From Methanococcoides sp. LMO-2 (GTDB taxonomy: Archaea > Halobacteriota > Methanosarcinia > Methanosarcinales > Methanosarcinaceae), in contig NZ_JBCAUS010000006.1 of assembly GCF_038432375.1 (NCBI RefSeq), positions 372,001 through 436,000 of the forward strand: DNA of 64,000 bases. Direction: 5' to 3'. The notes beneath the pieces are model-generated. The model was not told the origin of the DNA. It saw only the letters and a list, made by a program, of their open reading frames with translations, and did no database searches. Position numbers and translations under genes: made by a program. Within the stretch, counting starts at the first letter, position 1. Each line of letters begins with the position of its first letter. Below, piece by piece: positions 47,443 through 55,676 of the stretch.

Positions 47443-48324
47443 TTATTGTAAAGCGGAAATTCCTGCCATTTCAAGCAGTTTCTGAGTATTGGAATTGCCC
47501 CCGATAGGCATCAGGTGGATTCCGCTGCACATCTTACGTAACTCCCGGATGCTCTCCGCAGCGATCTCAAGCCCTTCCTGAACAGGGTCTTCGGCATCCT
47601 CCATGCGGGATATCATCTCATCCCCCACCCTTATTCCCGGAACATTGCCATTCATGAAACGTGCCATCCCTGCCGAACGAAGCGGAATGATCCCTGCCAG
47701 CACCGGCACATCGGGGTCCGGGAACGAGTCCATGAACTCGCCAAAACCTTCCACATCATAGACCGCCTGGGTCTGTATGAACCGTGCACCAGCATCAATC
47801 TTCTTTTTGAGCTTGATCATCTGCATCCTGCGTGCTGCATCGGTGTTGGAGACCGCACCAACGGTGAATGACGGAGCACCTGCAAGCTCATTGCATGCCA
47901 TATCGTGTCCAGCCATCATTTTAGTGATAACTGAGAGAAGCTGTACAGAATCAAGATCATACACCGGCTTTGTACCCGCATGATCGCCTTTGGTGGGATA
48001 GTCCCCTGTCATCACGCAGAGATTCCTGATCCCAAGGGCTGATGCCGCCAGGATGTCGGATTGCAATGCCAGACGATTGCGATCACGGCAGGTGAACTGC
48101 ACTATCACCTCATGACCGGCATCCATCAGTAACTTACCCACGGCTACCGGGCTCATGCGCATTACCGCACGCTGGTTGTCCGTGATATTGATAGCATCCA
48201 CCCATCCCCTGATAATTTCTGCATCCTCAAGTACCGCCGAGATATCGGTACCCTTCGGGGGTGCCACCTCTGCGGTCACAATGAAGCGGTCTGAATTGAG
48301 CGCATCGTTGAAAGTTGATAGCAT
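47443..48324 (-). CDS. metF: Methylenetetrahydrofolate reductase (MetF-like)
   Basis: 293 residues, TIM barrel with VTAEVAPPKGTD, the TCRDRNR segment and FIQTQAVYDVEGF. Interconverts methylene- and methyl-tetrahydrofolate. Its usual partner MetV and the other folate C1 genes lie from 55062 on, same strand, beyond the 6.7-kb island. A promoter-like TTTAAAAAC lies in the 61-bp gap upstream. Confidence 0.9.
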   Translation of the reverse strand: MLSTFNDALNSDRFIVTAEVAPPKGTDISAVLEDAEIIRGWVDAINITDNQRAVMRMSPVAVGKLLMDAGHEVIVQFTCRDRNRLALQSDILAASALGIRNLCVMTGDYPTKGDHAGTKPVYDLDSVQLLSVITKMMAGHDMACNELAGAPSFTVGAVSNTDAARRMQMIKLKKKIDAGARFIQTQAVYDVEGFGEFMDSFPDPDVPVLAGIIPLRSAGMARFMNGNVPGIRVGDEMISRMEDAEDPVQEGLEIAAESIRELRKMCSGIHLMPIGGNSNTQKLLEMAGISALQ

Positions 48325-48385
48325 CGTGGGGTAAATATGTAGGTCTGGTTTTTAAATGCATCGCGACCTTGAGGAAGGTAAGGGT

Positions 48386-48568
48386 TTAACTTTTCTTATC
48401 AATAAATTGCATGAACACTATGGAAAGAACACCGCAGATGAATGTGATCCAGAGCAACGGCTGGTTATATTCTCCTTTTCCCCACCAGAGATAACCGAGA
48501 TATAATGCTGCCACCAGTGCTGTTGTGGAAAGAATGCGGAAGAGAATGTTCATTGTTTTCAGGTTCAT
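48386..48568 (-). CDS. Small two-helix membrane protein (60 aa)
   Basis: Hypothetical. Two membrane helices (about 7-27 and 36-53) and a basic tail. Similar in layout to the 65-residue protein encoded just upstream (48843-48646), so the two may be diverged copies. Function unknown. Confidence 0.55.
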   Translation of the reverse strand: MNLKTMNILFRILSTTALVAALYLGYLWWGKGEYNQPLLWITFICGVLSIVFMQFIDKKS

Positions 48569-48645
48569 AGCAGGACACCATATAAATTAACAGACAACAT
48601 TACATAAATTATCTTTGAGGATATACCCGATCAATTAAATGCCCA

Positions 48646-48843
48646 TCAGTTGCCTCTTTCAACCATATTTCTTTTAATGACCTCTTTGATCGAAGCCGCC
48701 AACAATGAAAATAGCAAGGAAATAGACAACAGCAACTGACTGGAATTGTCGTAATACCATCCCTGATAGGCATTGTAAAATGCAGTCGCCAGAGCTATTA
48801 TAATGAACAAATTGAAGAAAATATCAAGATGTTCTGTACTCAT
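48646..48843 (-). CDS. Small two-helix membrane protein (65 aa)
   Basis: Starts at ATG 48843 with GGAGAAAATAC before it; that ATG overlaps the stop of the upstream gene (ATGA), so it is translationally coupled. Two membrane helices with a WYYDNSSQ loop between them. The longer in-frame extension to 48930 runs inside the upstream gene and is not used. Could serve as partner or immunity-like protein; this is a guess. Confidence 0.58.
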   Translation of the reverse strand: MSTEHLDIFFNLFIIIALATAFYNAYQGWYYDNSSQLLLSISLLFSLLAASIKEVIKRNMVERGN

Positions 48844-49682
48844 TGTATTTTCTCCAGTATTTTCTCCATGAAAAATGCCAAAACAAGAACAAAAATAACT
48901 AATTTGATTCCCCGGGGAGATCTCGGCCATAGCATATCCATATTATAGACTTTTTCTTCAGAAGTTGATGGAAATTCCTTGTATGCTTCAGGGAAGACCT
49001 GCTTTATGTATTCTCCATATGTAATGTCAGTACCATACAACTTATTTGCAATCTCGAGCCTATCCTCATCCATTGTATAACTTTCAGATGAAAACTGGAC
49101 TGAGCTATTGGAAATGAGTTCATCGTCAGCAATTGTATTTGCTTCTGCATTTTCCAGCTCCAGAACTTCATTGTTGTACCATATTTCTGCCTTTTCGTGG
49201 ATCCTTGATACGGACCTTTCATCACCCGCAATTCCCACATAGTGACTTGTTATCCCTTCATCATCAATTCTAAAACAGTACGCTACAATGCGCCCTCCTT
49301 CCGGAACCTGAGGTACTGAATACATTATAGAACCATATGAAGCTCCATTCTCCGACGTATTCGCATAATAGCTATTGATCACATCGTTCCTTGCTTCATT
49401 TAGTTCTGTTAGCAAAATCGGGTCTGAAAAATTACGTACCAGATACACATATTCTGTGCCTTCATGTGAACGCACAATCCCATCATCCGGTGCTTCATCG
49501 GGTAGTTGATAATCCCACGTAGCATTGCCAAAAACTTCCATTACTTCTTCAGGTGTCAAAACCCTTCCTGGCAACTGCCCTTCAACAGACTCATTGCTTT
49601 GTTCTGCATTTTCTTCAATTGCCAATCCGGACCCGATCATGCCGATCACTAACAGTAATCCCAGAAATAGCTTTAGTTTCAT
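48840..49682 (-). CDS. Secreted, C-terminally anchored protein of unknown function
   Basis: 280 residues from ATG 49682 (AGAGGAT upstream). Signal peptide (about 1-21), a 220-residue acidic outer domain with many Asn-x-Ser/Thr sites, then one C-terminal helix (about 258-275) ending EKILEKIQ. No family recognised. The upstream region, including start and ribosome-binding site, resembles that of the glycine-zipper gene at 54732 although the mature proteins do not. Confidence 0.65.
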   Translation of the reverse strand: MKLKLFLGLLLVIGMIGSGLAIEENAEQSNESVEGQLPGRVLTPEEVMEVFGNATWDYQLPDEAPDDGIVRSHEGTEYVYLVRNFSDPILLTELNEARNDVINSYYANTSENGASYGSIMYSVPQVPEGGRIVAYCFRIDDEGITSHYVGIAGDERSVSRIHEKAEIWYNNEVLELENAEANTIADDELISNSSVQFSSESYTMDEDRLEIANKLYGTDITYGEYIKQVFPEAYKEFPSTSEEKVYNMDMLWPRSPRGIKLVIFVLVLAFFMEKILEKIQ

Positions 49683-50013
49683 GCAATATCCTCTTGAACC
49701 CATTGATCCGGAAACAAAGACGTAGCCATAGGAGTAAACAGTAAAACCTGAGATTATACCCTGATATGCGGATTGGCTGTTCTGTCAAGAATTCCCAAAT
49801 ATCACAACGTCTTTACAATGTCTTATTCTGTTCTAAGTGCCAAGCAGTATAAATATTTTATATCCATTTCATCAAATTGTTCTTTTTGACAACTTTGTGT
49901 TGCACAATCAACATTTTTTACATTATTTTCAACTTTAGTTAGCCAAAAAAGCATGCTCAAATAAGGATGGAGCATCCTAAGAACAGAATTAACATGCCCA
50001 TAAGACGTGCAAT
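49683..50013. other. Island intergenic region containing regulatory element C
   Basis: 331 bp without a supportable gene. Positions 49701-49800 resemble 54751-54850, and 49806-49879 is one of the three 74-bp related elements. The 49880-50013 part is AT-rich. ORFs here are shadows or lack a start site. Confidence 0.5.
49806..49879 (+). repeat. Regulatory element C (74 bp)
   Basis: Aligns without gaps to elements A (51874-51947) and B (54862-54935). Contains TATAAATA at 49848-49855 reading rightward. After it, CAAATTGT and ACAACTTTG form a hairpin with one bulge. About 125 nt upstream of the minus-strand gene at 49682. Confidence 0.6.
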
Positions 50014-50853
50014 TCAAAATCGACCCAGGCTGAGCCATGAGTCTTCTGCAACCCAGGTTGTGATGGTGATAAATTTATCAACTACAATATGTGGTTCTCG
50101 TTCGGATTCAGAACTTATGAACAGACCTTTACTTTTCCACTTAACTGAATTATAAAATTCTCCAAAAATCTTGCCACTTTGTGAGTGCTCTTTATTTTCA
50201 GTAACCGACAACATGGTGCAATTTGTAAGTACCTCTGAATTTCCCACAACAAGCACATTGTCGGAACTATCAATGAAAAACAGTCCTTCAATGTGAACAT
50301 CTTTGTTCTTGTCCCCCTTGCAACCAATCTGGTCTTCCCAGCTTTCATGGGATATCTCAAGGACACTTACAGTGAAAGAGGAGAAATTATCTGGATCGGG
50401 CAAGAGAATTTCAAGTTCATATAATTCTATTACTGTGCTCTCCATTAGCTTTCCGGTAGCCGAAAATTCTCTTGAGCCAACTGGTTTCATCTCAAGGGCA
50501 TTTATTTCCAGAACATTGGCTCTGTCATCAGCGATTATTTCAGTAATATTCCCCTCAGATTCGATAAGTATAATATTTGCTGCTCCAAACTCGCTTAAAC
50601 CAATCACATTTTGAGGATCAATACGAAGGGATGTGGAATCAATGACTGAATCGATATAGCCACTTGAAGCAGAGTAGCTACTCAAAGGAACCGGATATTT
50701 ATGAAAAGATGTATTAAATAATTCTGAAAACTTGAACTCATTGCTTGAGTGATAAGGTTCTGCAGGCAAAGTGACTAAAGCTGATATTAGACTGATGAAC
50801 AGGATCAGGCTTATTGTTATGAATATTAATTTTTTAGACGATAGCTCATACAT
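50014..50853 (-). CDS. N-terminally anchored exported protein, unknown function
   Basis: 279 residues. One N-terminal membrane helix (about 9-28) and an outer domain with several N-glycosylation-type sites and a Cys pair. No repeats or motif recognised. Starts at ATG 50853. The 268-bp gap upstream contains only a doubtful 61-codon frame. Confidence 0.6.
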   Translation of the reverse strand: MYELSSKKLIFITISLILFISLISALVTLPAEPYHSSNEFKFSELFNTSFHKYPVPLSSYSASSGYIDSVIDSTSLRIDPQNVIGLSEFGAANIILIESEGNITEIIADDRANVLEINALEMKPVGSREFSATGKLMESTVIELYELEILLPDPDNFSSFTVSVLEISHESWEDQIGCKGDKNKDVHIEGLFFIDSSDNVLVVGNSEVLTNCTMLSVTENKEHSQSGKIFGEFYNSVKWKSKGLFISSESEREPHIVVDKFITITTWVAEDSWLSLGRF

Positions 50854-51121
50854 TTGATCAGAACCTGCATCTTATCCAAACATTCTTTCCCAAAGCAAGA
50901 TCAAATTGACCTTAAATCGAATTTTAATTCACTTATCGTTTGACCTTGAACTTAATAGATGGTCCAGTATCAACGTAATATTAGAGAATGCCAGACCTTC
51001 CTTTCTCCTGTACCAGACCATGAATGAAACATGGACAACGTAACGAAGAAAGCCAGAATGAATATCCCTCACATTATCGCAATATTCCTTTTTAGTTTTT
51101 GGAGATATGACCACAAAACTA

Positions 51122-51712
51122 TCACTTCCTACTCCTTGCCGATAACAACAGCCCGATGATAAGCATTATTGAGGTAAAGCCCGGCGTTTGCTTGTTTGTC
51201 CCGGGTTCTTCCTGTGTTGTTTCATTGACTATGATCACAAGATTTCCATCTTCGTCGAAATGGGCTTCATCCCTAACGTTCTTAGCTTCCTCTTCCATCA
51301 AACCAGCCATCTTTGCCATGAAAGCATAATCAGTAACCTTTATATCATCTGGATATCGATCCCAGACATCAATAAGTTTGTTCTTATACTCTACCTTCTC
51401 CTCATCAGAAAGATCCATGCCATCAATATAGTTTAGATAGACAACCCTGCTATCATTATTCGTTCCAGCATAAGCTAAGGCACTACCACCTCCCGGCATA
51501 GCTCTTACCACAGCAGGCAAGTTCTTTTGCAACTCAAGATAATCTTCCATTTCCTGGACAGCATCTTCCCCCAATTTCTCCCTGGTTTCTTCAAGTCTTA
51601 GTTGGGCAGCATCCTCAACAAAAGTCTCATTCTCACTAACTGCTGCGCTTGCAGATGATGTAAGACACATTACCAACATGATAGCAATTAGCACTCCAAT
51701 TAGCTTATTCAT
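51122..51712 (-). CDS. Secreted protein with PGF-CTERM-like archaeosortase signal
   Basis: 196 residues: signal peptide (about 1-23), an acidic helical body, a Thr/Gln/Glu linker, then the sequence TPGFTSIMLIIGLLLSARSRK-like tail (short motif TPGF, hydrophobic helix, basic end). That tripartite tail is typical of PGF-CTERM proteins, which are cut and lipid-anchored by an archaeosortase. The body matches nothing I know. Element A lies about 160 nt upstream. Confidence 0.65.
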   Translation of the reverse strand: MNKLIGVLIAIMLVMCLTSSASAAVSENETFVEDAAQLRLEETREKLGEDAVQEMEDYLELQKNLPAVVRAMPGGGSALAYAGTNNDSRVVYLNYIDGMDLSDEEKVEYKNKLIDVWDRYPDDIKVTDYAFMAKMAGLMEEEAKNVRDEAHFDEDGNLVIIVNETTQEEPGTNKQTPGFTSIMLIIGLLLSARSRK

Positions 51713-51873
51713 TTTCTATCAATTCCTTGTCTTTCAAGTACCATAAAACACGTCTAGGTTTGCTTTTTAAGGACAATCCTGATACATCTATAATATCAAC
51801 TTCAAACCTAGCTCTGCTCCAGAAAACGGAAGTCATTCATTGCCATAAAACAAAGCTGACCCCCACTTCATCG

Positions 51874-51947
51874 AACATTTTTGCGATGTTGCAATAAATC
51901 CTAGATAAGAGATTGTATAAATATTTTCTAACCACATCATCGAACTG
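51874..51947 (+). repeat. Regulatory element A (74 bp)
   Basis: Matches element B at 58 of 74 positions with no gap. Holds AACAT-N7-ATGTT near its left end and TATAAATA at 51916-51923, about 22-30 nt before the inverted repeat core. Acts as the likely promoter of the gene at 52029. Confidence 0.65.
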
Positions 51948-51970
51948 TTTTTTCAGTTCGACGATATGGT
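51931..51970. promoter_or_regulatory. 17-bp inverted repeat at the start site of the rightward promoter
   Basis: 51931-51947 is the inverse of 51954-51970 with two mismatches; the inner 8 bp (TCGAACTG/CAGTTCGA) are perfect around six T. It lies 8-25 nt after the TATA box, where transcription should begin, so it fits an operator or a 5' hairpin. Confidence 0.55.
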
Positions 51971-52028
51971 CACAAAACTTATATCCTGTTTTTTTGCAAG
52001 ATGTTTTGTAAAATTTAGGAGGAAAAAT

Positions 52029-52451
52029 ATGATAAGAAAAATTGGATTATTACTAATAGTAATGCTTATATCGGTATCTTTTGCCGCAGCTACCGCCAGT
52101 CAGGACAACGGATATACCATCGTTCCTGTCAAGTCAGATCCTACAATCACACCAAGATGGGTTTCTGACACCATCACACAGGGAGAAACAAACTGGCATG
52201 GTGAAATAATCAGTTCATACACAACTTCACGTCACATAGACCTGAACTGGGGTGACACAAGCGATTCACTTAGGCTTATAGTGTACAGCCCGAGCAATGA
52301 AATAATCGGGACATTCTATGACAATGCAGACGGTGTCATCGATGGAAGAATTAACATTGTAATAACAAATTCAAATGGATTTGAACTCGGAACCTGGAAT
52401 AGTCAGGTTTATGGATATAGTGTCAAGGGTACAGAAGATTATTATATCTGA
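52029..52451 (+). CDS. Small secreted beta-rich protein
   Basis: 140 residues. Signal peptide (about 1-22), then a beta-rich domain with WHGEIISSYTTSRHIDLNWGD and a C-terminal YSVKGTEDYYI. Start ATG 52029 with AGGAGG 7 nt before it. No family recognised, and no anchor, so it should be released or bound to the surface. Lies 17 nt before the membrane regulator gene and is probably co-transcribed and regulated by it. Confidence 0.65.
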   Translation: MIRKIGLLLIVMLISVSFAAATASQDNGYTIVPVKSDPTITPRWVSDTITQGETNWHGEIISSYTTSRHIDLNWGDTSDSLRLIVYSPSNEIIGTFYDNADGVIDGRINIVITNSNGFELGTWNSQVYGYSVKGTEDYYI

Positions 52452-52468
52452 AAATTGTTTCCATTGTT

Positions 52469-53203
52469 ATGAGATATTTATGGATTCCATTTTTGCTTTT
52501 CATACTCATTTGCAATCCAGCTCTGGCCAGTGCAAACGAGTATGAAGTAGCTCCATACACGGGTCCTGAAAGAGGTATGTATGAAGGTGGTGGCCATGAT
52601 ATCACCTTCTCTTTTTTTGAGCTTCCATTATCTCTTCAAATCATCTACATCTCAGGATTGTTGGGAGCCCCATTAGCCCTTTACAAATTCATACCCCTCC
52701 TTTTAGGAAGGATAAGGCAAAAATGCGAGAACCCTCACAGGAATCGAATTCTTCACTACATAACCGAGAATCCCGGAAGCACAATATCTGATATTGAAAA
52801 GACTCTAGAGATGGAAAGAAGCACCGTAAGATATCATTTAAAAGTGCTTCAATTTAAAAACAAAATAACCCGATTGGAAAAAGGGAAGTTAGTGCTGCTT
52901 TTTAAGAATTCATACAAATATACGGATACAGAAAAGAAAATCATCTTCTTCCTGCGAAATGACACAGGAAAATCAATTCTAATCTCCATTCTTCATGAGC
53001 CAGGAATAACAAACCAGAATCTCACACAGACATTCGGACTGGCTAAAAGCACCGTGCATTGGCATATTGATGAGCTGCACAATGAAGGACTTGTACATTT
53101 CAAAAGCGATGGGAAATACAAAAGGTGCTTTATTAATCCGGCGATAGAGGCAGATCTGAAAAACGCCATATCGGAATCCGAACCTGCCATTTCAGCTATT
53201 TAA
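52469..53203 (+). CDS. Membrane-anchored regulator with two winged-helix domains
   Basis: 244 residues. Signal peptide, a short outer segment (about 22-55, with NEYEVAPYTGPERG), one membrane helix (about 55-78), then two winged-helix units inside (about 88-160 and 165-235; ERSTVRYHLKVLQ and AKSTVHWHIDELHNEG are recognition helices). This places a DNA-binding module at the membrane with a small external sensor. Related proteins are common in Methanosarcinales. Natural target candidates are the 74-bp elements around it. Confidence 0.75.
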   Translation: MRYLWIPFLLFILICNPALASANEYEVAPYTGPERGMYEGGGHDITFSFFELPLSLQIIYISGLLGAPLALYKFIPLLLGRIRQKCENPHRNRILHYITENPGSTISDIEKTLEMERSTVRYHLKVLQFKNKITRLEKGKLVLLFKNSYKYTDTEKKIIFFLRNDTGKSILISILHEPGITNQNLTQTFGLAKSTVHWHIDELHNEGLVHFKSDGKYKRCFINPAIEADLKNAISESEPAISAI

Positions 53204-53345
53204 TCAGCAGTTCTTGATTTTATGTTCATTTTCATTAGCATCATCTTTGATTCTGATCGTGTCTTCTAAATACAAGAACTACAAAGAATCCAATATTAGA
53301 TTTTACCGTCGTTTATTTGATTTGCCCTTTAAATAATATTTAACA

Positions 53346-53810
53346 TCAAATGTGACTGTGTTTCACAGCATTTGAACTTCCATTTCTATTTCTAATAATG
53401 AAATAGACAATTACAATCAATGCATAACCCACTGCCAGAGTAGTTCTATAGGAAAGCTCAAAACCTGACACATACGCGATTATAGTCACTGGCATATAAA
53501 GGATAAAACCTATCAATGAACTTTTCATGAACGCGATGTCACGGAGCTTTTCGGATGCATCCAAATTATCTTTGTTAAGAATATAGATTCCTGTTACAAT
53601 AAAAAATGCTAACAAGCCTGCATCCAGCCAATAGTCCACAGGACCCAAATTTTGAGCAACTATTAAATTGGGGTTACCTGTATCTGCCTGTGAAAATAGC
53701 AGGAATTTTATTTTTGAGAGGAAAAGACCATATACATAATAAAAAAAAAGTCCAAGCAAAGCCCCTGCAAATACAAGGATTTTTGCTCGCAATTGTTTTG
53801 TTGTCTTCAT
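53346..53810 (-). CDS. Four-helix membrane protein, partner of the glycine-zipper protein
   Basis: 154 residues with four membrane segments (about 11-31, 58-78, 95-115, 122-140) and short loops. No motif. The gene follows the glycine-zipper gene by 25 nt on the same strand, as an immunity or transport gene might. Confidence 0.6.
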   Translation of the reverse strand: MKTTKQLRAKILVFAGALLGLFFYYVYGLFLSKIKFLLFSQADTGNPNLIVAQNLGPVDYWLDAGLLAFFIVTGIYILNKDNLDASEKLRDIAFMKSSLIGFILYMPVTIIAYVSGFELSYRTTLAVGYALIVIVYFIIRNRNGSSNAVKHSHI

Positions 53811-53835
53811 AAGTGTACTCCTGAAAAATCAAGAC

Positions 53836-54732
53836 TTATGGATTTCCAACACTCATTGTATCCCAAAGAGTGTACGAAGCGATTCTATAATATAAAGGCA
53901 CAAATATGGGCAAATTTGTAGGAGGGAGACTGACATAACTCGATATATGAGACTCCCAATACCAGATACATCCTTCTTCATCCAGAAGAGCATCACTGGA
54001 AGTACCTCCAAGTACAAGTCCAAGAGCTGCACCTATGGCCGCACCAGGAACATTTCCAAGATATGCCCCAATTGTAGCTCCTGCAACTGCAGGTGCCAGT
54101 TGTGATATTGTATTAGACCTTGACTGCCTGATATGGTTGTGTTTAAGTTCATCTCCATTAATGTAATAATCCTGCCATACCTCACCATTATACGCAGTAT
54201 AACTTGGATGTGGGTACTTCACCCCGGTACCTTTCACAAAATTGACATCGTCCCATACATAAGAAGTTGATCTTGTCACAACCTGTTCATCCTGAAATAA
54301 AGATGGAGTTGTTTTCTGAGACAATAATTCTTTAGTTTCCCCGGGGTCCAGAGGATTATATGTTGTGAAATAACTTTCAGTGTTTTCTTCGTTGAGCGTT
54401 ACATCAACTTTGAAGTTATCAGATAATTTTGTCACATAAAATTCGAGGACCTCTTTTTCGTTAGTGGTTACATCCTCTACTTCCATTATACCTTCTGTGA
54501 AATCCTCATCTGTATTGAGAGATATAACAATATCTCCAACTTGAACAATACTTGATGTATCTGTCATTTCTATTATCTGAATATCCGGCCTGTTTTCAAT
54601 AATAACTTCATTTTCAGCATCTATGGAAGAAAATGCAGTGTTTTCTTTTGCGCTTACAGTGGGTAAACAAATTGAGCCCAATATCAGTAACGTCATGAAA
54701 ATTGTTGTTACTCTTATCCCTTTGGTTTTCAC
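53836..54732 (-). CDS. Secreted protein with glycine-zipper segment, bacteriocin-like layout
   Basis: About 298 residues. Signal peptide (about 1-30), an acidic beta-rich region (to about 130), then a segment with WDDVNFVKGTGVKYPHPSY, and a glycine-zipper helix pair with GATIGAYLGN and GAAIGAALGLVLGG (about 215-245) that could insert into membranes, and an aromatic tail. Start GTG 54732 has AGAGGT upstream and corresponds to ATG 49682; ATG 54753 is the alternative. The overall plan resembles large secreted bacteriocins, but I cannot assign a family. Confidence 0.65.
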   Translation of the reverse strand: MKTKGIRVTTIFMTLLILGSICLPTVSAKENTAFSSIDAENEVIIENRPDIQIIEMTDTSSIVQVGDIVISLNTDEDFTEGIMEVEDVTTNEKEVLEFYVTKLSDNFKVDVTLNEENTESYFTTYNPLDPGETKELLSQKTTPSLFQDEQVVTRSTSYVWDDVNFVKGTGVKYPHPSYTAYNGEVWQDYYINGDELKHNHIRQSRSNTISQLAPAVAGATIGAYLGNVPGAAIGAALGLVLGGTSSDALLDEEGCIWYWESHISSYVSLPPTNLPIFVPLYYRIASYTLWDTMSVGNP

Positions 54733-54753
54733 GAATATACCTCTTAGATTCAT

Positions 54754-55061
54754 TTACTCCAGAAGTAAAGCTACGCTTATATAGTACAAACAGCGAAGTA
54801 TAACCCTGCCTTCTGGCACGGGGCTTCAGTTATTCCGTCAAGACTGGCTGAACCCCCTACTAACATTTTTACGATGTTGCATTATGTTCTAACTAAGTTA
54901 CATTATAAATATAATCTGACCATATCATCGAACTGAAAGTGAACATTTGGATACACAGGAATCTATATTTTTCAGAAAAATAAGGTAGAAATCAGTAGAT
55001 ATCCCCAACATCTGACTTGAAGCCGAGAACAATAAGCCATATCGAATAACAAAAACAAAAC
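54754..55061. other. Island edge region with element B
   Basis: 308 bp between the island and metV. Contains a minus-strand TATA-like CTATATAAGC (54776-54785), element B (54862-54935), then AT-rich sequence with no gene I can support. Confidence 0.5.
54862..54935 (+). repeat. Regulatory element B (74 bp)
   Basis: Gapless match to element A (58/74) and C. It includes AACATTTTTACGATGTT, TATAAATA (54904-54911) and CATATCATCGAACTG at its end. No rightward gene follows it, but the minus-strand glycine-zipper gene begins about 110-130 nt to its left. Confidence 0.6.
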
Positions 55062-55676
55062 TTACTTCACCAGCCGATCCTTCGCATCCCGGACCTCATC
55101 CAGCAGATCCAGCCGTCCGATCCTCTCAAGTCGCTCGTAGATCAACTCCCAGGCGCAATCCTTCTCAGGATCAACCTCGCATTTGCCATCCATGGAACCA
55201 CCGCAGGGACCGTTGAGCAGTTCCTTGGGACACTGGGCTGTGGGACAGACGCCACCGAACTCGGCGATGGTGCACTGGCCGCACATGGCACACAGATGAT
55301 GGATAATCCTGTCTCCTGCCATGGCACCCAGAGATTCGGTGTTGTTGGCAGGATAGACATCCACGTCCACAAAGCGTGCAATGTTGGAAGTGCCGCTTCC
55401 GCACGCCATGACAAGCACTGCATCGGCATCCTTTATCTCAGGTGCAAGCTCCTCAAGGGCTTCACATGAGCGAACACTGCATGCTGCCTTTGCAACAACT
55501 CCACCGATCACGTTTATTCCGGCATCCTTAAGGTTGGATTTCATCTCGTCGACCTCAGGTTCTCCACCTACATGCTGCTTGGCAGCGCATACGCTGCAGC
55601 CTACGATAAAAATGGACTCCTTGTCCGAAAGCATGTCAAGGATCTCGCTAAAGGGTTTGGAAGATGAGATTATCAT
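55062..55676 (-). CDS. MetV-like zinc/Fe-S protein of methylene-THF reductase
   Basis: 204 residues. Rich in Cys: GCSVCAAKQHVGGEP at the N-terminus, and CAMCGQC, GGVCPTAQCPKE and GPCGGSMDGKCEVD in the second half. This is the MetV family, the electron-carrying subunit of MetVF reductases that lack FAD-NADH coupling. 7 nt downstream of folP-like gene. Its MetF partner is 6.7 kb away across the island. Confidence 0.86.
   Translation of the reverse strand: MIISSSKPFSEILDMLSDKESIFIVGCSVCAAKQHVGGEPEVDEMKSNLKDAGINVIGGVVAKAACSVRSCEALEELAPEIKDADAVLVMACGSGTSNIARFVDVDVYPANNTESLGAMAGDRIIHHLCAMCGQCTIAEFGGVCPTAQCPKELLNGPCGGSMDGKCEVDPEKDCAWELIYERLERIGRLDLLDEVRDAKDRLVK

What the first reader, a model, noticed from the sequence alone, without database searches (positions are those of the whole stretch)
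53346..54732. Possible archaeal bacteriocin-like secreted protein with a 4-TM companion
The exported 298-residue protein carries a glycine-zipper hairpin (GxxxG/GxxxA pattern, GATIGAYLGN then GAAIGAALGLVLGG), a mark of membrane-inserting peptides including bacteriocins. The next gene on the same transcript codes for a small four-helix membrane protein, as expected for an immunity protein. Similar companion patterns exist at 48840-48386: a secreted protein followed by two small two-helix membrane proteins. Archaeocins of methanogens are almost unknown.
Basis: inference. Interest (0 to 1): 0.7.

Follow-up and report, generated by a model that had tools for sequence, protein, structure and literature searches.

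The report
Methanogen secreted toxin–immunity gene pair
A methane-producing archaeon carries a gene for a secreted protein that probably punches holes in rival cells, next to a gene for a small membrane protein that probably protects the producer; similar pairs recur in other methane-producing and related archaea, which hints at a little-known form of chemical warfare among them.

Summary
The 298-aa exported protein (53836-54732, -) has a real, conserved glycine zipper, and a 4-helix membrane gene (53346-53810) starts 25 bp after it. The pair is rare in its genus (toxin in 1 of 11 genomes) and lies in an AT-rich island between metV and metF. Relatives occur in Methanosarcinales, Methanomicrobiales and a family (f10) that looks like Archaeoglobaceae. 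In 19 of 19 loci with most of the toxin gene, a homologous companion lies within 383 bp on the same strand. In six further loci the toxin is a stub and the companion is an open frame. The companion occurs alone and in tandem, in 47 of 392 genomes against 15 for the toxin. This is the signature of a secreted toxin with a membrane immunity protein. Three sequence-unrelated hairpin families (A, B, C), each with its own small membrane partner, emerged; some sit beside the same regulator pair. No solved structure or known toxin family matched. Toxicity, pore formation and protection are inferred, not shown. A key 2019 survey could not be read.

The parts
53836..54732 (-). Putative secreted hairpin toxin, family A (298 aa from GTG; 305 aa if the ATG at 54753 is used)
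   Evidence: homologues
54649..54732 (-). Export signal, about 28 residues ending TVSA
   Evidence: by inspection and hydropathy; same kind of leader in relatives
54364..54582 (-). N-terminal all-beta domain (mature residues about 23-95)
   Evidence: AF2 model, block pLDDT about 69-93 in this stretch
54010..54093 (-). Glycine-zipper helix or hairpin, proposed membrane-inserting part
   Evidence: helix 186-213 of the mature protein, block pLDDT about 66-70; invariant glycines; shuffle test
53839..53985 (-). Conserved tail with LDEEGCIWYW and YTLWDxxSVGNP motifs
   Evidence: alignments
53346..53810 (-). Four-helix membrane companion, putative immunity protein
52029..52451 (+). Small secreted protein (c7) that pairs with the regulator; ORF reaches back to 51966
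52469..53203 (+). Membrane-anchored regulator with two winged helix-turn-helix domains (c5), beside toxin genes in several genomes
48646..48843 (-). Two-helix membrane protein, putative orphan immunity gene of hairpin family C
   Evidence: 36% identity to L101:4647-4835, E 6e-14 in a small local comparison; no family C gene in this genome
48386..48568 (-). Second two-helix membrane protein of the same kind

Best explanation
The pair is an archaeocin with its immunity gene. The 298-aa protein is exported by the general secretion route (inferred from its leader). Its beta domain probably binds a target or keeps the toxin part safe until release (inferred). Its C-terminal part, built around a conserved glycine-zipper helix or hairpin, inserts into the membrane of related archaea, oligomerises and makes it leaky (inferred). 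The 4-helix companion stays in the producer's own membrane and blocks insertion or the pore, as the small membrane immunity proteins of pore-forming colicins do (analogy, recalled). The pair spreads by horizontal transfer (inferred from patchiness and base composition) and sits in a variable island; elsewhere companion genes outlive their toxins (shown by genome comparison).
For: Companion next to the toxin in 19 of 19 loci with most of the toxin, same strand, at most 383 bp away, downstream in 16 and upstream in 3. Six loci keep only a toxin stub and an open companion frame. Companion in 47 of 392 genomes and toxin in 15 of 392, all 15 also holding the companion; the companion also forms tandem sets, e.g. 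three in a row in G144. Toxin and companion distances correlate (Mantel r 0.68, 0 of 10000 permutations, n=16). Conserved glycine zipper. Patchy occurrence: 1 of 11 genomes of the genus. Island GC 0.38 against 0.51-0.53 for flanking genes, in a metV-metF interval of 0.2-21 kb across the genus. Two further secreted hairpin families each have their own small membrane partner: 14 of 14 and 10 of 10 copies examined, against 21 of 113 other predicted secreted genes in the same loci. A tested archaeal toxin, SSV9 B310, has the same layout: about 300 aa, signal peptide, then a small 3-TM gene (PMC8628083, passages).
Against: No activity data. The C-terminal half is poorly modelled (pLDDT mostly under 50) and no fold or family match supports a pore former. 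In three loci the protein goes on for some 250 more residues with dockerin-like motifs (recognised by eye; a Pfam scan of one of them gave no dockerin), which would also suit a surface protein. In SSV9 the toxin itself, not the small membrane gene, protected cells (PMC8628083, passages). One locus (L076) has an intact toxin and a companion split into two frames. Some broken toxins come from metagenome assemblies, where errors occur.
Confidence: 0.74

Rival explanations
1. The secreted protein is a surface or envelope protein that uses a glycine-zipper helix as membrane anchor, and the 4-helix protein helps place or hold it. The two always sit together because they form one complex, not because one protects against the other.
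For: Glycine zippers are common in envelope proteins (Pfam Gly-zipper_Omp and related hits below cut-off). Three relatives carry extra C-terminal domains with dockerin-like motifs. Fixed gene order fits a complex.
Against: Companion genes persist alone, in tandem and beside toxin stubs. Occurrence is patchy in a variable island. The same gene plan recurs with unrelated secreted proteins and other small membrane proteins.
Confidence: 0.15
2. It is a toxin, but the 4-helix protein is not the immunity factor: it helps export, processing or display, and immunity lies in the toxin precursor itself, as in halocin C8 and as reported for SSV9 B310.
For: Precedents with a small membrane gene next to the toxin but self-protection by the toxin gene (PMC8628083, passages). 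The N-terminal domain is conserved and could be a protective pro-part.
Against: Orphan companions, tandem companions and companions beside stubs are hard to explain for an export helper.
Confidence: 0.1
3. The secreted protein is a signal or sensor, for example a peptide-like signal read by the nearby membrane regulator, and the 4-helix protein is part of that circuit.
For: A membrane winged-helix regulator lies within 2.3 kb of the toxin in 5 of 19 loci.
Against: 14 of 19 loci have no such regulator within 2.3 kb of the toxin (some of these contigs are short). The regulator's secreted partner is found in 115 of 392 genomes, mostly without the toxin.
Confidence: 0.04

Closest known systems
SSV9 B310-C108 (Sulfolobus spindle-shaped virus toxin pair)
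   Same: Archaeal; about 300-aa protein with a signal peptide, followed directly by a small multi-helix membrane gene; inhibits relatives; companion type follows toxin type (PMC8628083, passages).
   Different: No detectable sequence similarity for the annotated B252 part or C108. Virus-borne, no transmembrane segment in the toxin, and the toxin itself gave protection.
Pore-forming colicins with 3-4 helix immunity proteins (recalled)
   Same: Released pore former paired with a small membrane immunity protein.
   Different: Bacterial, plasmid-borne, no cleaved leader, larger, helical pore domain (all recalled); no family hit.
Class II bacteriocins (Pfam Bacteriocin_IIc; E492 microcins)
   Same: Glycine-rich membrane helix; paired immunity gene.
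   Different: Far longer protein, apparent Sec-type leader and not a double-glycine leader; only chance-level hits (E 0.24; E 0.068 for one relative).
Halocin C8 and related archaeocins
   Same: Archaeal secreted antimicrobial proteins.
   Different: Halocin C8 is a cysteine-rich peptide (recalled) whose precursor also provides immunity (passage in PMC8628083). No NCBIfam hit here, one cysteine, separate companion gene.
Polymorphic toxin systems
   Same: Orphan and tandem immunity genes; exchangeable cassettes in a hotspot.
   Different: No constant delivery domain with swapped C-termini: both halves of the protein are conserved together. Apparent shared N-termini were signal peptides only.

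Membership tests
Bacteriocin/archaeocin with dedicated immunity gene | Exported protein with a membrane-active segment | tested here: inconclusive
   Leader by inspection and conserved glycine zipper; membrane activity not tested
Bacteriocin/archaeocin with dedicated immunity gene | Immunity gene always with the toxin, and able to persist without it | tested here: met
   19 of 19 plus 6 of 6 stub loci; 47 against 15 of 392 genomes
Bacteriocin/archaeocin with dedicated immunity gene | Kills or inhibits related cells; companion protects | not testable with these tools
   needs an assay
Class IIc bacteriocin (PF10439) | Profile match and double-glycine leader | tested here: not met
   11.9 bits against cut-off 27.1; no double-glycine leader seen by inspection
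Glycine-zipper envelope proteins (PF13488, PF13441, PF13436) | Score above the gathering cut-off | tested here: not met
   23.3 of 25, 21.4 of 28.9, 19.1 of 27 bits
SSV9 B310 toxin family | Sequence homology of toxin or companion | tested here: not met
   No convincing profile or single-sequence match; best E 0.014 without filters against a very small set; the start of B310 before the annotated B252 was not included
SSV9 B310 toxin family | Two-gene layout: ~300-aa secreted protein plus small membrane gene | tested here: met
Halocin C8 | Cysteine-rich toxin cut from a precursor that also gives immunity | tested here: not met
   the motif cysteine of the window protein is absent in some relatives; no NCBIfam hit
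Polymorphic toxin systems | Constant N-terminal delivery part with exchangeable C-terminal toxin domains | tested here: not met
Candidate archaeocin families of Makarova et al. 2019 | Listed in that survey | not testable with these tools
   paper not held

The most novel reading that the evidence does not exclude
Methanogens and related archaea own a whole class of exported hairpin toxins. At least three sequence-unrelated families (A, glycine zipper; B, 'GSLDV' type; C, 'VDLPSTAP' type) each have a private small membrane immunity protein (4-helix, 2-helix, another 2-helix). They are swapped as cassettes in island hotspots such as metV-metF and are in part controlled by a shared membrane-anchored regulator with a secreted sensor partner.
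Probability: 0.5. Interest if true: 0.85.

Novelty: new variant of a known kind. Interest (0 to 1): 0.68.

Why it matters
The archaeocins described in the passages I read come from haloarchaea and Sulfolobales. A defined two-gene unit in methanogens, with relatives in Methanosarcina (named in two record titles), makes methanogen-methanogen antagonism directly testable in a genetic host. The companion families give a way to read which toxins a lineage has met, and the unit could help explain strain turnover in sediments and digesters.

Tried and rejected
Signal-peptide trap: early matches of the toxin's N-terminus to other secreted proteins (L039, L047) suggested swapped C-termini; iteration showed that only the leader is shared, so that idea was dropped.

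Two weak hits (L004, L005) were read and dropped: lipoprotein-like leader matches, no toxin features.

Phage, plasmid and viral-contig searches for the toxin gave nothing; nor did family B in plasmids and families B and C in viral contigs. These single-query or pattern searches do not exclude distant relatives in bacteria. The scan of 84,980 species genomes with two strict peptide patterns returned eight confirmed loci, all titled as archaea.

Fold searches of both models gave no match below E 0.27 (toxin) and 1.1 (companion). Sequence search of solved structures gave only chance hits. Profile comparison of families A, B and C found no homology among them.

The regulator's secreted partner was considered as a marker for toxin loci and rejected as such: 115 of 392 genomes have it. 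A rough enrichment figure for the regulator printed rests on an assumed background and is not used.

Full report
What is there. The window holds a 298-residue exported protein (53836-54732, minus strand, GTG start; 305 residues if the upstream ATG is used) and, 25 bp further on, a 154-residue membrane protein (53346-53810). The first has a leader ending TVSA, a conserved beta-rich stretch, and a glycine zipper at about residues 214-241. Six GxxxG/A pairs in 32 residues were seen, against a mean of 1.2 in shuffles and 0 of 5000 shuffles reaching six. The zipper glycines are invariant among the nine full-length proteins of A1. The AF2 model of the mature protein, from nine aligned rows, gives a confident all-beta N-terminal domain, a helix over the zipper, and an unreliable tail (mean pLDDT 53). 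The companion model is confident and has four long helices (mean pLDDT 86). Neither model matched a solved structure, and no Pfam, NCBIfam or PHROGs model passed for the pair; PADLOC gave no match for either protein.

Who else has it. In the genus the toxin is found in 1 of 11 genomes (G000-G010). In the class, 12 of 237 genomes match the C-terminal half. In a sample of the phylum, 15 of 392 match the profile. A scan of named species genomes gave eight loci, all archaeal: two Methanosarcina, a Methanosarcinaceae and a Methanosarcinales archaeon, two records titled only Euryarchaeota archaeon, a Methanomicrobiales archaeon and a Methanoculleus.

The companion test. I collected 19 loci that hold most of the toxin gene. 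All 19 have a homologue of the 4-helix gene on the same strand within 383 bp: 16 downstream, 3 upstream (the three, L040-L042, are the ones with extra C-terminal domains). Several of these companions were in the alignment behind the profile, so part of this count is circular; the first detection used only the window's own protein. Six more loci keep only a stub of the toxin (L043, L044, L081, L082, L156, L198) and all six keep an open companion frame of 127-159 residues. L038 and L059 have frame breaks in the toxin and an open companion; L034 has lost the start of the toxin frame. The opposite case, toxin open and companion split, was seen once (L076). The toxin gene is about twice as long as the companion and several genomes are metagenome assemblies, so some of this asymmetry could come from errors.

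The companion alone. It occurs in 47 of 392 genomes, including all 15 toxin genomes. It forms tandem sets, for example three in a row in G144 and three upstream of the toxin in G145. Toxin and companion sequence distances correlate across 16 of the 19 loci (Mantel r 0.68, 0 of 10000 permutations; L038, L042 and L076 were left out of this test). That is expected both for co-transfer and for shared descent, and does not by itself prove matching specificity.

The island. Between metV and metF the interval is 6.7 kb here, and 0.2, 0.9, 1.9, 3.7, 6.3, 6.8, 13.3, 15.1 and 21.4 kb in the nine other genus genomes where both genes lie on one contig (coordinates; in G009 they are on different contigs). 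metV itself is present in two copies in G005 and G006 and in four in G009. GC is 0.38 in the island and 0.51-0.53 in the flanking genes.

Two more families. Looking at what stands beside companions and in sister islands gave two more exported proteins with a hydrophobic segment before the C-terminus: family B (L046:9804-10538, L039:3642-4358; 16 of 111 genomes of the family) and family C (L101:3766-4575, L148:4225-5058; 10 of 111). With a mechanical rule (same strand, at most 110 residues, at least one hydrophobic segment, within 450 bp downstream), 14 of 14 family B and 10 of 10 family C copies have a small membrane gene next. Of 113 other predicted secreted genes in the same loci, 21 do; with a stricter rule the numbers are 14 of 14, 9 of 10 and 11 of 113. 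I examined 14 B copies and 10 C copies, not every match. Families A, B and C show no sequence homology to one another by profile comparison.

The regulator. A membrane protein with two winged helix-turn-helix domains (52469-53203) and a small secreted partner (52029-52451) stand between the pair and the rest of the island. The regulator lies within 2.3 kb of toxin A in 5 of 19 loci (window, L033, L034, L055, L076), with the secreted partner in four of these. It also stands next to family B in L046, L192 and L198 and to family C in L101 and L203. In most other genomes it must regulate something else (115 of 392 have the secreted partner).

How it most likely works. Shown here: linkage, loss asymmetry, orphan companions, conserved zipper, island residence. 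Inferred: export, membrane insertion, killing of relatives, protection by the companion. The closest tested case is the toxin pair of Sulfolobus spindle-shaped virus 9, a ~300-residue secreted toxin followed by a 3-helix gene (PMC8628083, passages). There is no convincing homology, and there the toxin itself protected the producer, which is the main caution for calling our companion the immunity factor.

Literature. Searches listed no paper whose title or abstract start describes archaeocins of methanogens with this architecture. PMC12893001 was seen as abstract and outline. PMC12352652, PMC4609331, PMC10105419 and PMC8628083 were seen as passages, and PMC8416519 as passages and section 14; it states that regulators of arCOG02808 lie near archaeocin genes. 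Whether our regulator is in that arCOG was not tested. The survey most likely to list these families, Makarova et al. 2019, is not held, so I do not claim that they are unpublished.

Verdict.

Noticed in passing
window 47443-55676 and L096-L107: The metV-metF interval is a hotspot of exported and membrane proteins in the genus, from 0.2 to 21 kb, with metV (and in places a piece of the gene before it) duplicated two to four times in G005, G006 and G009.
   Followed up: partly
L096:6659-12848, L097:5853-12040, L101:15044 to L102:2146: Beside the same regulator pair, three sister genomes carry an operon of a small secreted protein, a large exported protein, two ABC-type permease-like proteins, another exported protein and an ATPase-like protein; it could be an export or self-protection cassette.
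   Followed up: no
window 52029-53203: Regulator plus secreted partner pair; the secreted partner is found in 115 of 392 genomes of the phylum, up to ten copies per genome, sometimes as the end of longer proteins (e.g. L164:4499-5389).
   Followed up: partly
L103: Four metV copies, each followed by exported proteins of one large family, suggest tandem amplification of the island unit.
   Followed up: no
L040, L041, L042: Three toxin relatives run on for about 250 residues with repeated DDWNPWNDxDS motifs that look like dockerin repeats by eye; their companions lie upstream of the toxin.
   Followed up: no
L198:4338-6119: One locus stacks a family B toxin and its 60-aa partner, a 41-residue C-terminal remnant of family A, and an open 4-helix companion.
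   Followed up: yes
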